Assembly (NCBI RefSeq): GCF_012952065.1
Contig: NZ_JABCJJ010000020.1
Location: 1-57,958, forward strand
Reading direction: 5' to 3'
Origin: Cellulomonas fimi
GTDB taxonomy: Bacteria; Actinomycetota; Actinomycetes; Actinomycetales; Cellulomonadaceae
DNA: 57,958 nucleotides
Part shown: positions 51,917-57,958 of the stretch, one piece after another
Numbering within the stretch: the first letter of the stretch is position 1
How the letters are laid out: every line of letters begins with the position of its first letter
Position numbers and translations under genes: made by a program
Notes under the pieces: model-generated
Databases searched by the model: none
Seen by the model: only the letters and a program-made list of their open reading frames with translations
Told to the model about the DNA's origin: nothing

Positions 51917-54268
51917 TCAGTCCACGCCCTCGGCGGCGAGCGCGTCGGTGAGCAGCCCGACCAGAGCCTCGAGCTGCACGTCGGTCGACGACGAGACGTC
52001 CTCGTCGCGCGCCCCGTCCAGCGCCCGGGCGGCCAGCCCCGACTTGCTGTCGATCAGCTCGGCGATCTTCGCGTCGATGGTCTGCGCGGCGATGATCCGC
52101 CACGCGGTGACGGGCTCGGCCTGGCCGATCCGGTGGACCCGGTCGATGGCCTGGGTCTGCTCGGCATCGGTCCAGGACAGCTCGGCCAGCACCAGGTTGG
52201 AGGCGACCTGGAGGTTCAACCCCACGCCGGCGGCCAGCAGCGAGCACACCGCGACCTGCACGTCGGGGTCGTTCGTGAACGCGGCGATGTTCTTCTCGCG
52301 CGCCTTGGGCGTCTGGTCGCCGCGGATCGAGGCGTACCGGATCCCGCGGTCGGCGAAGGTCTGCTCGGCCTGGTCCATCACGTCGACGTGCTTGGCGAAG
52401 AACACCACCTTGCCGACGTTGCGGGCCAGCTGGGCGGCGTAGTCGGCCGCCAACCCGGCCTTCGCCTGACCGATCCGACGGACCATCGTGAACACGTTCT
52501 CGCCACCGGCCTTCGAGCTCGAGTCCTTGAGCTCCGCCGCAGCCACCCGTCGAGCGAGCGCGACGTCGATCCCGTCCGCGACGGCGTCGTCCGTACGCGC
52601 CTCCACGGCCGACCGGTAGCGGCTGACCAGGCGTTGGGCGAGCGCGGCCTCGGCGGCGCGGAGCGAGCGGCCGACGGCGCCGTCGAGCTCGACGGGCAGG
52701 TCCGCCACCCGGCGAGCCGGGATGTCGGCAGCCACGTCGACCTTGCGACGCCGCACGATGCCCATGTCGATCACGCTGGTCCGCGCCGCGGCGTAGAACC
52801 CCGGGTCGGCCGGGGTGAGCCCGGTGTCCTCGAGGGCGGTCATGAGCCTGCCCAGCGGCTTGGTGTCGTCGATCCACCCGAGGAGCTGCCAGATCGCCCG
52901 GAAGTCCTCGATGTCGTTGATCAGCGGGGTGCCGGTGAGCGCCATCAGCAGCGGCCGGGCGGTCCGGGCGCGGATCCGTTCGGAGAGGGCGAGGACGTGC
53001 TGGGAACGCTGGGAGCCCTTGTTCTTGATGAAGTGCGCCTCGTCGACGACCATGCCCCGGAAGCCCAGGTCGCCGAGCCAGCCGACGTGCCGGTCGAGGA
53101 GCTCGTAGTTCACGATGACGACGTCCGCGAACGCGTCGACCCGCTCGCCGTCGCCGTGGACCACCGTGGCCCGACGCAGCGGCGTCCACATCCCGACCTC
53201 GTGCGCCCAGTTCGCCTTCACCACGTTGGGCACCACGACGAGCAGCGGGAAGGCGTCGGCCGCCTGGGCGGCGAGCAGCGCCTGTGCCGTCTTGCCGAGC
53301 CCGGGCTCGTCGGCGAGCAGGAACGTGCGATGGCCACCGGCGGCGGCCGCGACGACCTGTGCCTGGTGCGGCATCAGCTCGCGGCCGGGGGGAGCGAACA
53401 CCGGGCCGCCCTCGGGAAGCGGCATGCAGGCGGGGGCGCCGGGGCCGGCGTACTCGAAGGACCGGAAGAGCGGCTCGAGCAGTTCCCAGCCGGCCAGCCG
53501 ACGGGCCCGCGCCGCCGTCCGCTCGGCCGCGGCCTCGAAGTCAGGGGCGAGGAACGGGTTCGCCAGCCGGCGCGAGATCACCGACCGGGGCACCACCCGC
53601 TTCTCGGCGCCGGGCTCCGGCGCGGTCGGCGGAGCAGGCTCGGGCTCCTCGGGCGGCTCCAGTCCGCCGGCGCGCATCACGGTCGCCTTGAAGGAGCGCG
53701 CCGCGTCGGAGACCCGGGCATCGTCAGCGAGCAGCTGGAGCAGCGAGGTGTCACGGGCGGCGATCTTGGCCAGGAGGGTCGCCACGCCGTCGAGCCGCTT
53801 GAGCTGCTGCGTCCGCTGGGACGGGGTCAGGGCGCCGTCGGCCCGCACCCGGTCCCGCTCCTCGCGGACGAGCAGAGCCACGACCTGGAACTTGGTCCGC
53901 ACCGCCGGGCGCGTCGGCGGTCGCTGCACGGCGCCGTCGACCTCGCGGGCGACCCCCGCGAGCACCGGGATGAGGCCTTCCTCGGAGGGACGCGGGGGAC
54001 GACGGCGCTGCGCACCTGGGTCGGTACGCGCGCGGCCGGACCGGCGTTGTGCTGGTCGTCCCACATCTCCTCCTTCGTTGCGTCGGCGCTGCCGCCGAGG
54101 GGCAGCCCGCGGCTCGGGCGCCCCGCGAGCGTCGGCGTCGAGGGCCGCGACCGCAGCCGCAGGCAGTGAGAGCCAGGGCGCTCGGATCGCGGCCCCGGGC
54201 CGCGTTGCGGCAACCCCGCTCCCATCTGCTGGACCGGCCTCACGCCATGGTGAGCCGCCGCAGAACAT
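51917..54268 (-). CDS. SNF2-family DNA-dependent ATPase, about 783 aa
   Basis: Stop 51917. ATG 54268 (MFCGGSPWREAG) is one start choice; TTG 54346 would add 26 residues. A variable N-terminal region is followed by the Snf2 motor: LMPHQAQVVAAAAGG, motif I FLLADEPGLGKTAQALLA, motif II VVDEAHFIKNK, motif III LLMALTGTPLIND, motif V NLQVASNLVLAELSW and motif VI AIDRVHRIGQAEPVTAWRI. These give DEAH-box chemistry of the SMARCAL1/HepA kind that moves on duplex DNA. The N-terminal 130 residues are rich in Arg, Pro and Ala and could be disordered. It is the last clearly chromosomal gene before the tRNA scar. Confidence 0.85.
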   Translation of the reverse strand: MFCGGSPWREAGPADGSGVAATRPGAAIRAPWLSLPAAAVAALDADARGAPEPRAAPRRQRRRNEGGDVGRPAQRRSGRARTDPGAQRRRPPRPSEEGLIPVLAGVAREVDGAVQRPPTRPAVRTKFQVVALLVREERDRVRADGALTPSQRTQQLKRLDGVATLLAKIAARDTSLLQLLADDARVSDAARSFKATVMRAGGLEPPEEPEPAPPTAPEPGAEKRVVPRSVISRRLANPFLAPDFEAAAERTAARARRLAGWELLEPLFRSFEYAGPGAPACMPLPEGGPVFAPPGRELMPHQAQVVAAAAGGHRTFLLADEPGLGKTAQALLAAQAADAFPLLVVVPNVVKANWAHEVGMWTPLRRATVVHGDGERVDAFADVVIVNYELLDRHVGWLGDLGFRGMVVDEAHFIKNKGSQRSQHVLALSERIRARTARPLLMALTGTPLINDIEDFRAIWQLLGWIDDTKPLGRLMTALEDTGLTPADPGFYAAARTSVIDMGIVRRRKVDVAADIPARRVADLPVELDGAVGRSLRAAEAALAQRLVSRYRSAVEARTDDAVADGIDVALARRVAAAELKDSSSKAGGENVFTMVRRIGQAKAGLAADYAAQLARNVGKVVFFAKHVDVMDQAEQTFADRGIRYASIRGDQTPKAREKNIAAFTNDPDVQVAVCSLLAAGVGLNLQVASNLVLAELSWTDAEQTQAIDRVHRIGQAEPVTAWRIIAAQTIDAKIAELIDSKSGLAARALDGARDEDVSSSTDVQLEALVGLLTDALAAEGVD

Positions 54269-54483
54269 CTCCGTGAACCGCCACGTGGCACGAACGGGCA
54301 CGCTCGATCGACGGAGGACCTGAGCGTACCGCGACGGGTGCTGCAATCACTCCGATAGCTGGATCCCAGGATCGAGCGTCAGCGCTCTAACCCGACCACG
54401 TGCCAGCCGAAGCCGCGCCACCGAGAGGTGCACCGGAGCCCGGCCTCGGTGAGCACCCGCCATTGAGTTGCACAAACACCCTG

Positions 54484-54525
54484 TGCGCCGGGGCAGATTC
54501 GAACTGCCGACACCCGCTCTAGGAG
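54484..54525 (-). tRNA. Truncated tRNA-Arg(CCT): 3' 42 nt only (attachment-site scar)
   Basis: On the minus strand the bases fit tRNA positions 32-73: anticodon loop CTCCTAG with anticodon CCT (plus-strand 54521-54523), 3' anticodon arm AGCGG, variable loop GTGTC, T-arm GGCAG-TTCGAAT-CTGCC, acceptor strand CCGGCGC and A73. Upstream bases do not supply the 5' anticodon arm (needs CCGCT, has TCGAA) or the D-arm. Homology thus begins at the anticodon loop, the usual crossover point of tyrosine recombinases. This is what attR looks like after insertion into a tRNA gene, and it places the inserted element to the right of this point. Confidence 0.82.
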
Positions 54526-54760
54526 TTCGATCTTGGTCCACACGGAACGCGCTGACCTGCGGAACTACACGCGGGTAGTTCGTCGGATGACAACGATCTG
54601 TCGTATGCGCTGACCACACGCTGACCACGCACGCCCGCCCGCCCTCGGCAAGCGAACCTTCGTCGTTGGGCGCGCCGCCGGCCCTCCGCGCGGCCAGGAG
54701 TCCAGCGACGGAGGGACGAGCCTGCGGGGCGATGGCAGTGCCTCCCTCTAGGATGCCCGT
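54526..54760. other. Island-end non-coding region with CGCTGACC repeats
   Basis: No gene is supported here. CGCTGACC occurs at 54550-54557 and, as CGCTGACCAC, at 54608-54617 and 54619-54628, the last two with an 11-base period. Repeats of this kind next to an att core can be integrase arm sites or element-end sequence. The stretch also holds the promoter region of the AAA ATPase gene. Confidence 0.5.
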
Positions 54761-55735
54761 GTGGCCGGCAGACAGTTGAAGGAGATCTTCCGTGCGTACC
54801 ACGCGCGGGACGACCTAGCCTTCCGTCGCGCGGCCCTGGAGATCATCGAGGAGGAACAGGCAAAGCATCACAACGCCCTGGCGCGCGACCTCCAGAAGCT
54901 CCTTGTTGCAGGCGGCCGCCCGGTAGATTCCGGATCGACCGTCGTGGTGCCTCTACCACCGAAAGACCGCGAAGGCGAGTGGGATCTCGGTGAGGTCCGG
55001 GAGCCAAACCGTCTGTTTGATGATCTTGTGCTCCACCCAAACGTCGCCACGGCGCTCGAGGGCATCGTGGACGAAGTTCGTAAGTGGCCATCGTTGGATG
55101 CCGCAGGAATACCGCGGAGACAAAAACTCCTCCTACAGGGACCGCCTGGCTGCGGAAAGACAACAGCGGCCGAAGCGGTGGCGGGCGAGCTCGGCCGCCC
55201 TCTGCTTATCGTACGGCTCGACGCAGTGGTGTCCTCATACCTTGGAGAGACCGCGAGCAACCTGCGACGCATCTTGGACTATGCAGATCAAGCGCCCTTT
55301 GTCGTGCTCTTCGACGAGTTCGATGCGCTAGGCCGATCCCGTGACGACGCTTCCGAGCACGGTGAAATGAAGCGTGTCGTGACAGCCTTTCTGCAGATGA
55401 CGGACCGATATCGAGGGCCTAGCCTCCTGCTTGCCGCCACAAACCATCCGACGCTTCTCGACGAGGCGCTCTGGCGGCGGTTTGACGAAGTGCTTTCGTT
55501 CGGCCTCCCTTCCGTCCATCAAATACGGCGACTAATCCGACTACGACTGAGAAGCGTCTCGCACACAGGTATGGAAATCGATCGCTACGCGAGCACCTTA
55601 AGAGGACTGCCTCACGCCGCGGCGGAAAAGATGGTCCTTGACGCCCGGCGAAATGCCCTCTTGCGGAACTCGCCGGTTGTCGAGCGCGAAGACGCAGAGA
55701 AGGCCTTGCCGTTGATCACCTCGCGGCCCTGGTGA
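54761..55735 (+). CDS. AAA-family ATPase, partner of the downstream subtilase, 324 aa
   Basis: GTG 54761 (MAGRQLKEIFRAYHARDDLAF). An N-terminal helical region (1-60) with EIIEEEQAKHHNALARDLQKLL precedes a classic AAA module. It has Walker A GPPGCGKT (127-134), the pore-region loop SSYLGET (158-164), Walker B VVLFDEFDALG with Asp185-Glu186, sensor Asn228 in LLAATNHP, and the Arg pair WRRFD at 239-240. Third codon positions are much less GC-rich than in the chromosome to the left, so it is likely acquired. The stop is 4 bases before the subtilase start, indicating an operon. Such an ATPase could unfold or deliver substrates, or gate the protease. Confidence 0.9.
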   Translation: MAGRQLKEIFRAYHARDDLAFRRAALEIIEEEQAKHHNALARDLQKLLVAGGRPVDSGSTVVVPLPPKDREGEWDLGEVREPNRLFDDLVLHPNVATALEGIVDEVRKWPSLDAAGIPRRQKLLLQGPPGCGKTTAAEAVAGELGRPLLIVRLDAVVSSYLGETASNLRRILDYADQAPFVVLFDEFDALGRSRDDASEHGEMKRVVTAFLQMTDRYRGPSLLLAATNHPTLLDEALWRRFDEVLSFGLPSVHQIRRLIRLRLRSVSHTGMEIDRYASTLRGLPHAAAEKMVLDARRNALLRNSPVVEREDAEKALPLITSRPW

Positions 55736-55739
55736 AGCG

Positions 55740-57866
55740 GTGCCCGAGCATCTTCTTTTGCCTGCGCCCCGGCCCACCGGGTCCCGACGCACGAGTCCTG
55801 CTGGCGGAGGGGCGCCCAGCCGGCAACAGGGGGATCACGGGCACCATCTACGTGACCAACTAGAGACCGCCCGCGCCCCGCGCCAGCTAAACGCGGGTGT
55901 CGACCCTGACCTCGTCTTCAAGATCAGGGCAGGATCCCGGCCGGAGGATTCAGCATTTGAAGGGCGCGGACTTCAGATCCTCGGCGAGACTGTCGACTAT
56001 ACGTACTTCGTGCTGGCCAGCGACCACGGAGAATCCCTCCATGCGGCCCTTCAGCTCTACGCGGCGACAGGCGAACTCCGCTCATTCTTTAATCAGATCG
56101 ACAACATTGAACCATATGGGCCTGGTGACCGGACCGGTCCAGGATTAGACTCGCTCGAGCACAATTTCGCAGGTACACGCGTCATCGATGTGGCGGTTTG
56201 GCCGTCGGCAGCATACGCAGAGGCGCAACGTCGAGCAGCCATCGTTGAGACGATCGTCACGCAGAACGGCGGTGAAGTTCTACTTCGGTCGGTTTCGGCA
56301 CGTAGAAGCTATCTTCGCGTTGCGACTACTGCACTTGGACTGGACGACCTCCTCAACACGAGCGTCGTCGAGCTGGTCCGAACCCCTCCCGTGCCGTTCC
56401 TTGACTTCCGCGACTGGCGTAGCATTGACATCGCAGCACTCACTAGGGCTCAGCAGCAAAGTGAAGTGGTCGGAGTGCTCGACGACTCACCCGAGTCGTC
56501 GCATCCCCTGCTAGCCGGGCTGGTGCTTTCAGACGAGTCCCTTGGTCCACCCGACTATCAGTGGCAGCAGCGCGGCACACACGGCACAGAGGTCGTCGGT
56601 CGGGTCGCCTTCCCCAGGCTCCACGAGGAGCTGCGCGACGCGCTTCCGCTAACTGCGGTCGGAGCAGTCAGAGTCGTTCGCATTCTCGAGCCCGATCCCG
56701 CTAGACCTGGCCACCCACCGCGGTTTCCAACGTTCGCGACACCGCACGAGTTAGTCGATCACGCAATCCGCCACCTGCACGGAACCTACGGGGTTCGGGT
56801 GTTCAACTTGTCGGTCGGATACTCCGAGCCTTTCAACGACCTCCACGTTGGGCCCCTTACCGAGACGATCGACGACCTCGTTCGCGAGTTGGGCGTCGTG
56901 GTCGTCGTCCCGACGGGCAACGCGCCGGCAGGCCTCGACGCCCGCACCCACAGCGGTCACCACATAATCAACGACAAACCCGAGTACTTCTTCAGCCCTG
57001 AGCATCGGTTGGCGGAGCCCGGCCCCGCTGCCCTCGCCGTCACGGTAGGAGCGCTAGCACTGAGCGGCGCACCAGCAGAGCTACCGGGCAGAGTGGGGTG
57101 GCTGGCGGCAGCCGACGCCGACGAGGCCGCGCCCTTCAGTCGCAGCGGCCCTGGCCTCGGGACCAGCAGCCGGCGGGCAAACAAGCCTGACGTGACCCAC
57201 TACGGCGGAAACACCGTCATCAATGACGTTGGAAATGTCGTGCAGAACGACTTGGGCGCTTCCCTCGTCAGCACTTCGACCCAAGGTTCTGGCGGTCAAC
57301 TCTTCGCAGCCGTGAACGGCACAAGCTTCGCCGCGCCAGCCGTCGCCCGAGTCGCGGCAGACATCGCATATACCTATCCTGACGCCTCCGCAAACCTTAT
57401 CCGCGCGCTCCTCGCGAGTGGCGCTGAACCCACTGGGCCGGCCAAGACGCTACAAGAACATCACCGCCGCAGCCGTGTCTACGGGCTAGGACTGCCGACC
57501 GTTGAGCGGGCAACCACCAGCGAGGCTACACGCGTCACCATGACATATGACGGCTCAATGCCCGTCGACACGGTTCAGATACATCCCTTGCCCGTGCCTG
57601 AGGAGTTTCGTCGAGGCAGCCGCCGAGACAGGGTCATTAGTGTCGCCCTCGCCTTCGACCCGCCCGTGCGACGCCAACGGCGTGAGTACCTCGCCGGCAC
57701 AATTAAGTTTGACGTGTATCGAGACATCGATCCCGACGAACTGGCTGCCATCCTCCAACGTCAGGACCCGGACGACCCGTCGGACATCATCGGCGATCGT
57801 CGACGGCTAAATCTTCAGCCCGGCGTTAACAGGCTCTTCGCAGTTGGGGGTGTAGTCCGGCGGTGA
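55740..57866 (+). CDS. Cytoplasmic S8 (subtilisin-like) peptidase, 708 aa
   Basis: GTG 55740, 4 bases after the ATPase stop. There is no signal peptide or prodomain cleavage region. About 240 N-terminal residues unlike known prodomains precede the catalytic part. The triad is visible: Asp248 in VVGVLDDSPES, His281 in GTHGTEVVG and Ser529 in VNGTSFAAPAVARVAAD, with oxyanion Asn394 in VPTGNAP. A C-terminal beta-rich domain follows to 708. The same low-GC3 codon use as the ATPase points to joint transfer. A cytoplasmic protease paired with an AAA ATPase on an island suggests a conditional killer or defence role, which is inference. The last few codons border an IS-like sequence, so the very end could be altered. 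Confidence 0.9.
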   Translation: MPEHLLLPAPRPTGSRRTSPAGGGAPSRQQGDHGHHLRDQLETARAPRQLNAGVDPDLVFKIRAGSRPEDSAFEGRGLQILGETVDYTYFVLASDHGESLHAALQLYAATGELRSFFNQIDNIEPYGPGDRTGPGLDSLEHNFAGTRVIDVAVWPSAAYAEAQRRAAIVETIVTQNGGEVLLRSVSARRSYLRVATTALGLDDLLNTSVVELVRTPPVPFLDFRDWRSIDIAALTRAQQQSEVVGVLDDSPESSHPLLAGLVLSDESLGPPDYQWQQRGTHGTEVVGRVAFPRLHEELRDALPLTAVGAVRVVRILEPDPARPGHPPRFPTFATPHELVDHAIRHLHGTYGVRVFNLSVGYSEPFNDLHVGPLTETIDDLVRELGVVVVVPTGNAPAGLDARTHSGHHIINDKPEYFFSPEHRLAEPGPAALAVTVGALALSGAPAELPGRVGWLAAADADEAAPFSRSGPGLGTSSRRANKPDVTHYGGNTVINDVGNVVQNDLGASLVSTSTQGSGGQLFAAVNGTSFAAPAVARVAADIAYTYPDASANLIRALLASGAEPTGPAKTLQEHHRRSRVYGLGLPTVERATTSEATRVTMTYDGSMPVDTVQIHPLPVPEEFRRGSRRDRVISVALAFDPPVRRQRREYLAGTIKFDVYRDIDPDELAAILQRQDPDDPSDIIGDRRRLNLQPGVNRLFAVGGVVRR

Positions 57867-57897
57867 GGGTGTGCGGCGCGTCGCGGGGCGGGTAGAG

Positions 57898-57952
57898 GTC
57901 GAGGCCTTCCGATGATGGGAGTTCTCACACTGCCCATCGGGAAGACCTCGAC
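57898..57952. repeat. Hairpin in a probable IS leader at the right window edge
   Basis: GTCGAGGCCTTCCGATG (57898-57914) and CATCGGGAAGACCTCGAC (57935-57952) form a 17-bp stem with one mismatch and one bulge. GTG CTT at 57953 follows a GGGAAG ribosome-like site and could begin a transposase cut by the window end. It reminds me of leaders of IS481-type elements, but too little is present to be sure. Confidence 0.45.
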
Positions 57953-57958
57953 GTGCTT

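What the first reader, a model, noticed from the sequence alone, without database searches (positions are those of the whole stretch)
54761..57866. AAA ATPase plus cytoplasmic subtilase two-gene module: candidate defence or conflict system
Both genes have intact catalytic motifs (Walker A/B; Asp, His, Ser triad), no export signal, 4-base spacing and shared atypical codon use on a tRNA-linked island. A protease locked to an ATPase switch is a plausible abortive-infection or stress-triggered device. I do not know a named, characterised system with exactly this pair. This is my leading candidate for an undescribed system.
Basis: inference. Interest (0 to 1): 0.85.

Follow-up and report, generated by a model that had tools for sequence, protein, structure and literature searches.

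The report
IetAS defence pair, protease gene broken
The two genes are a known bacterial immunity and addiction module (IetAS: an ATPase that restrains a killing protease), and in this genome the protease gene has lost its end to a jumping gene, so this copy is probably inactive.

Summary
In detail: an AAA+ ATPase (54761-55735) and a subtilase (55740-57866) lie 4 bases apart, with active-site motifs, no export signal and foreign codon use. 'Undescribed system' does not hold. The pair matches PADLOC IetA (6e-85) and IetS (1.7e-63): IetAS, published as a toxin-antitoxin pair and catalogued as anti-phage. The 23 best ATPase relatives among 80 fetched loci all have a subtilase match downstream (17 strong, 6 weak); flanks hold Zac, Pycsar, Jet and AbiD matches.

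Its last 11 codons lie in the tip of an ISL3 insertion sequence that starts at 57832; the same 127 bases end another contig. The lost 82 residues were not found in the genome (the control found them in 4 of 4 relatives) and hold three long strands of a predicted C-terminal beta domain.

The window holds only a 3' fragment of tRNA-Arg(CCT), 235 bases before ietA; the whole tRNA is on another contig, consistent with an element end.

Verdict: a divergent, probably inactivated member of a known family. A side finding: a leaderless-type -10 element in 12 of 12 close copies.

The parts
54469..54525 (-). 3' fragment of tRNA-Arg(CCT): 89% identical over 57 bases to C5:1386-1442, that is 43 bases of the whole tRNA at C5 c[1400,1473] and 14 bases beyond its 3' end; probable attachment-site remnant marking an element end
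   Evidence: not called as a tRNA by ARAGORN
54610..54629 (+). 20-base exact match to C5:1310-1329, on the presumed element side of both tRNA copies; possible integrase arm site (inference)
54749..54754 (+). TAGGAT, -10-like element 6 bases before the ietA start; TANNNT at spacing 6 or 7 in the window and 11 of 11 close actinobacterial copies; suggests a leaderless mRNA (inference)
54761..55735 (+). ietA: AAA+ ATPase (antitoxin or restraint), 324 aa, GTG start; relatives begin with the same MAGR
55139..55162 (+). Walker A GPPGCGKT
55307..55324 (+). Walker B LFDEFD
55740..57866 (+). ietS: subtilase (peptidase S8, toxin or effector), 708 aa, truncated; native sequence ends at residue 697 (57830)
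56481..56483 (+). catalytic Asp248
56580..56582 (+). catalytic His281
56919..56921 (+). oxyanion Asn394
57324..57326 (+). catalytic Ser529
57832..57958 (+). tip of an ISL3-family insertion sequence; supplies the last codons and stop of ietS; 127 bases identical to the end of contig C83

Best explanation
This is an IetAS module carried near one end of what looks like an integrated element. In intact copies IetA, an AAA+ ATPase (here probably made from a leaderless mRNA), keeps the cytoplasmic subtilase IetS harmless. Phage replication or loss of the element frees IetS, which cleaves cell proteins and stops growth, giving both addiction and abortive-infection-type defence. Shown by others in relatives: IetS-type proteases are toxic and IetA-type ATPases neutralise them. 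Inferred: the trigger, the protease target, and that the same holds in this branch. In this genome an ISL3 element has cut off the last 82 residues of IetS and part of its C-terminal beta domain, so this copy most likely no longer works as a toxin or defence (inference).
For: PADLOC IetA 6.1e-85 and IetS 1.7e-63; NCBIfam best matches are the anti-phage IteA and IteS models. The 23 best of 80 ATPase loci have a subtilase match downstream on the same strand. Flanking matches: ZacA, ZacB and ZacC in L019 and ZacA in L023; in the pooled flanks PycC, PycTM, JetC, JetA, AbiD. Toxin-antitoxin behaviour of relatives: PMC5006074 (passages), PMC8562856 (passages). Truncation: 708 aa against 779-790 aa in 15 of 15 relatives measured; ISL3 tip at 57832; the same tail closes an unrelated ORF on C83; missing part not found in the genome, with a control that finds it in 4 of 4 relatives. 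Foreign GC3.
Against: Scores lie far below the NCBIfam equivalog cut-offs (238.4 of 510; 92.7 of 900), so this is a divergent branch for which I saw no experiment. The IetA profile alone is not specific: at E<=0.001 it rings in 14 of 14 control genomes and at 9 places of the own genome, next best 1.1e-35; the IetS profile rings in 5 of 14 controls at 0.001 and 0 of 14 at 1e-20. 6 of the 23 downstream subtilase matches are weak and partial. The catalytic triad is untouched and the shortened protein might fold. The contig ends in the insertion, so its far side is unseen. The model is of moderate quality (mean pLDDT 68.7; residues 392-507 mostly under 50). No phenotype was tested.
Confidence: 0.85

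Rival explanations
1. The truncated IetS is still an active, IetA-controlled protease; the C-terminal beta domain is dispensable, or the insertion made a new variant.
For: The frame stays open, the triad, oxyanion residue and the Pfam S8 domain (242-584) precede the cut, and IetA is complete.
Against: 15 of 15 relatives measured keep the domain at similar length; the cut removes three long predicted strands; the tail is insertion-sequence DNA.
Confidence: 0.1
2. The module serves mainly as an addiction system that keeps its mobile element in the cell; phage defence is secondary.
For: Relatives were characterised as toxin-antitoxin pairs on a Ti plasmid and on SGI1. IetS matches 53 plasmid records at E<=1e-5, 26 of them over at least 80% of the query and 27 of the 53 conjugative; an IetA-like ATPase matches 573 at E<=1e-30, 376 conjugative. 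The window copy sits beside a tRNA fragment.
Against: Defence matches occur in the flanks and the system is catalogued as anti-phage; the two roles are not exclusive. The 573 count is the ATPase alone, not the pair.
Confidence: 0.3
3. A housekeeping AAA-protease quality-control pair.
For: The ATPase domain resembles NSF, p97/CDC48, proteasome-activating nucleotidase and FtsH.
Against: Sporadic: the IetS profile rings in 7 of 221 genomes of the family, own included, at E<=1e-20, and in none of the 4 other genomes listed for the genus; foreign GC3; mobile neighbours in some relatives.
Confidence: 0.02

Closest known systems
IetAS (pTiC58; anti-phage system in PADLOC; IteA/IteS in NCBIfam)
   Same: ATPase gene followed by a subtilase gene; both profiles hit along most of their length; catalytic residues; defence and mobile genes in flanks of relatives
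   Different: Below NCBIfam equivalog cut-offs; IetS truncated by ISL3; leaderless-type promoter. The pTiC58 proteins themselves were not aligned here
SgiAT of Salmonella genomic island 1
   Same: AAA-ATPase antitoxin upstream of subtilisin-like toxin, on an integrated element (PMC5006074, passages read)
   Different: Other host group; shown to work as a toxin-antitoxin pair; not aligned here
Mycoplasma TA132/133
   Same: AAA-ATPase and subtilisin-like pair, ATPase first, chromosomal (PMC8562856, passages read)
   Different: Toxin 757 aa and functional; not aligned here
Tk-SP and KP-43 subtilases (PDB 3afg, 1wmd)
   Same: Foldseek ranks 1-2 and 4 for the model of an intact relative
   Different: Not known to be paired with an ATPase (recalled); 14-15% identity, TM-scores by query length 0.31-0.37

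Membership tests
IetAS | AAA+ ATPase matching IetA profiles | tested here: met
   PDLC02196 6.1e-85, residues 5-312. The profile also rings on ordinary AAA ATPases, next best in the own genome 1.1e-35, and in 14 of 14 controls at 0.001
IetAS | S8 peptidase matching IetS profiles | tested here: met
   PDLC02198 1.7e-63, residues 23-678; PF00082 1e-24; controls 5 of 14 at 0.001, 0 of 14 at 1e-20
IetAS | Adjacent genes, ATPase first | tested here: met
   4-base gap; same order in 23 of 23 best ATPase loci, 17 by strong and 6 by weak partial subtilase matches
IetAS | Walker motifs and Asp-His-Ser triad present | tested here: met
IetAS | Full-length IetS | tested here: not met
   708 aa versus 779-790 in 15 of 15 measured; ISL3 tip. 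This speaks against function of this copy, not against descent from the family
IetAS | NCBIfam equivalog cut-off (IteA 510, IteS 900 bits) | tested here: not met
   238.4 and 92.7 bits: divergent member, not an equivalog of the named proteins
IetAS | Protects against phage | not testable with these tools
   -
IetAS as toxin-antitoxin | IetS toxic alone, neutralised by IetA | not testable with these tools
   Shown in relatives by others, not for this branch
tRNA-integrated element | Direct copy of a tRNA 3' end at the far end of the element | tested here: met
   54469-54525 and C5:1386-1442, same orientation; that the two bound one element is not shown
tRNA-integrated element | Integrase gene between the two copies; empty site in relatives | tested here: inconclusive
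   8 integrase matches in the genome, none on C5 or C13, but the element would span contig breaks; the empty-site searches failed or met the cap

The most novel reading that the evidence does not exclude
The insertion left a working, shortened IetS whose C-terminal domain (target choice or trigger sensing) has been removed, so that this strain carries a natural variant that uncouples protease restraint from activation; and Actinobacteria hold a separate IetAS branch run from leaderless mRNA.
Probability: 0.08. Interest if true: 0.4.

Novelty: new member of a known kind. Interest (0 to 1): 0.18.

Why it matters
IetAS is a catalogued phage-defence and toxin-antitoxin system whose mechanism was still called unknown in papers of 2023 and 2025 (passages). 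The actinobacterial set gives compact, well-conserved pairs for structural work, and a natural truncation that points at the C-terminal domain. The window copy itself looks like decay of a defence gene by an insertion sequence.

Tried and rejected
An undescribed system: rejected, PADLOC and NCBIfam name it. Housekeeping pair: disfavoured. Intact module: rejected. A tRNA gene in the window: none by ARAGORN; at a relaxed score only a doubtful tRNA-Pro at c[4563,4653], far away. Solved structure of IetS: no sequence match in the PDB at E<=0.001. Sigma-70 promoter scan: nothing; the -10-like element was found by comparing starts instead. Phage records: no IetS match at E<=1e-5, although PMC11878078 reports an IetAS in a Pf phage (passages). 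E. coli genomes by DNA: none.

Results weaker than the headline. One search found 99 relatives of the ATPase and kept 80. Of the 23 linked loci, 17 have strong subtilase matches (E<=6.3e-27) and 6 (L033, L034, L036-L039) only weak matches to the catalytic part (E 2e-10 to 2.5e-5); some loci are cut by contig ends. Of the 8 places found by the IetS profile in the family, 3 show both proteins clearly (L009, L010 and the own locus), though the IetS frame of L010 holds a TGA; L012 shows a weak match to both, with the ATPase piece on the other strand; L014 and L016 show the ATPase, but IetS only by profile; L013 and L015 show no ATPase in their short flanks. IetS length was measured in 15 of the 23 linked loci; for 4 of them (L029, L031, L032, L035) the start was my estimate from the alignment. 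Neighbour survey: 82 proteins from a rough gene caller of mine, 80 of them from 10 of the 11 close loci (L021 too short) and 2 from the own genome, scanned in two pools whose tables show 25 of 27 and 25 of 34 families, so most hits are per pool, not per locus. Helicase matches to DrmD, DpdE or ZorD are probably shared-domain matches. Of the 20 proteins scanned singly against Pfam several are ordinary, such as a two-component pair in L022 and a GntR regulator in L017. No background rate was computed. L038 was left out of the ATPase alignment for a stop codon in my coordinates, and L037 and L039 were not put in. Gao et al. 2020 and Yamamoto et al. 2009 are not held: the first is recalled, the second seen only as a reference entry and through papers that cite it. 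No literature search was made for leaderless transcription of ietA.

Full report
Observation. Pfam gives AAA (1.5e-31) and Peptidase_S8 (1e-24). The Walker motifs, N228 and the Arg-Arg pair of the ATPase, and D248, H281, N394 and S529 of the protease, are conserved in alignments of 21 and 16 sequences. There is no N-terminal hydrophobic stretch. Both genes have GC3 0.68 against a median of 0.95 for the 30 genes of at least 200 aa that a rough caller gave in the window.

Identity. PADLOC names the pair IetA (6.1e-85) and IetS (1.7e-63). The ATPase profile by itself is not specific: it rings in 14 of 14 control genomes at E<=0.001 and at 9 places in the own genome, but the next best there is 1.1e-35. 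The IetS profile rings once in the own genome and in 5 of 14 controls at 0.001, and in 0 of 14 at 1e-20. NCBIfam's best matches are its anti-phage IteA and IteS models, far below their equivalog cut-offs, so this is a divergent branch. A scan of genome contigs (84,980 species genomes) with the ATPase found 99 relatives and kept 80 loci. The 23 best (L017-L039, E about 1e-37 or better) all have a subtilase match downstream on the same strand, 17 strong and 6 weak and partial; none of the other 57, apparently other AAA ATPases, does at E<=1e-4. The eleven closest are Actinobacteria, ATPase 68-85% identical. In the window's own family the IetS profile rings in 7 of 221 genomes, own included, at E<=1e-20, and in none of the 4 other genomes listed for the genus: a sporadic distribution.

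What is published. Passages read: PMC5006074 shows that the SGI1 pair S026-S025 (SgiAT) is a toxin-antitoxin system with the subtilisin-like protein as toxin and the AAA-ATPase as antitoxin, and names the pTiC58 system as the closest. PMC8562856 shows a mycoplasma AAA-ATPase/subtilisin-like pair to be a toxin-antitoxin system, with neutralisation. PMC11878078 and PMC9958689 list IetAS as an anti-phage system of unknown mechanism; the latter reports it with its integrase in 91%. A table in the review PMC10286901, seen as one passage, puts ietAS in a row with functional phage proteins such as DNA polymerase, ssDNA-binding protein, helicase and terminase. Gao et al. 2020, which I recall as the anti-phage report, is not held.

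The broken toxin gene. IetS of 15 relatives (11 actinobacterial, 4 others) has 779-790 residues; the window protein has 708 and departs from them after residue 697. From 57832 to the window's end, 127 bases are identical to the end of contig C83, where they close a different ORF with the same residues RLFAVGGVVRR and stop. The stretch matches 34 plasmid records; in the 10 listed the match starts at its first base, and 7 of these 10 name an ISL3 family transposase, one a transposase, one no feature, one has no annotation. In the Kocuria record that I opened it lies directly before an ISL3 transposase gene. So an ISL3 element has inserted in ietS and the contig stops there. The missing C-terminal sequence was not found in this genome, given as 99.97% complete, while the same query finds it in 4 of 4 relatives, down to 51% identity. 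Either it was deleted or it lies on a piece missing from the assembly.

What was lost. An AlphaFold model of the intact relative L019 (16-sequence alignment, mean pLDDT 68.7, pTM 0.65) shows N-terminal alpha/beta elements, the subtilase region (392-507 mostly under pLDDT 50) and a C-terminal beta-rich region with strands from 598 on; the cut at 697 removes strands 704-711, 721-729 and 742-753, a helix and a short last strand. Foldseek ranks Tk-SP first (ranks 1-3) and KP-43 fourth, with TM-scores by query length of only 0.31-0.37. That the cut abolishes activity is inference.

Element context. No tRNA gene lies in the window. At 54469-54525 there is a 3' piece of tRNA-Arg(CCT), 89% identical over 57 bases to C5:1386-1442, where the whole tRNA is c[1400,1473], in the same orientation; a 20-base exact match lies on the presumed element side of both. 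The ORF beside the tRNA on C5 (74-940) also has low GC3, 0.67. This fits an element whose left end is 235 bases before ietA and whose right end is the tRNA on C5. Integrase and empty site were not shown. To the left, 7 of 9 genes scanned have ordinary Pfam matches, such as Mn catalase, CutC and an FGGY kinase, and 2 none.

Expression. Just upstream of ietA, TANNNT stands 6 or 7 bases before the start codon in the window and 11 of 11 close copies; the same arrangement precedes 0.07-1.3% of all ATG/GTG on the + strand of these sequences. The DNA further upstream is unalike by eye. This is the layout of leaderless genes in Actinobacteria (recalled). The 12 copies are related, so they are not 12 independent cases.

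Neighbourhoods. Flanks of 10 close loci hold ZacA, ZacB and ZacC (L019) and ZacA (L023), and, in pooled scans, PycC and PycTM, JetC and JetA (Wadjet-type, as recalled), AbiD and others. Pfam shows a phage-integrase domain (L025), a TrwC relaxase and IstB (L026) and an Abi_2 protein (L023), which may be the AbiD hit, beside ordinary regulators.

Mechanism. Most likely: IetA restrains IetS; infection or loss of the element relieves the restraint; IetS degrades cell proteins and growth stops. Toxicity and neutralisation are shown in relatives by others; trigger, target and the role of ATP are not known to me from any call. In this strain the effector is truncated, so the module is probably dead, with the ATPase left intact.

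Noticed in passing
L121 (C83) 93-857, - strand: A second gene of low GC3 (0.70) is closed by the same ISL3 tip with the same tail; no Pfam match.
   Followed up: partly
L123 (C49) end and L124 (C7) end: A related IS tip (87% over 83 bases) stands near the ends of two further contigs.
   Followed up: no
window 51917-54346, - strand: SNF2-type helicase of 809 aa beside the element end; matches to DpdE, ZorD and DrmD that are probably shared-domain, nearest NCBIfam model SCO1167/SCO6262-type helicase far below cut-off; GC3 0.91, so probably chromosomal.
   Followed up: partly
L018 5751-7439: TniQ match (2.6e-21) near IetAS in Phycicoccus elongatus: possible Tn7-like carrier.
   Followed up: no
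L025 13670-17779: Large HD-CE / wHTH-Hsp90-associated protein beside IetAS in Rhodococcus rhodnii, a conflict-system type as recalled.
   Followed up: no
L122 (C5) 74-940, + strand: 288-aa ORF of low GC3 next to tRNA-Arg(CCT), no Pfam or PADLOC match; may belong to the other end of the element.
   Followed up: partly
L010 (G067:C17:5757-7898): The IetS frame of another genome of the family holds one TGA, so a second possibly broken copy.
   Followed up: no
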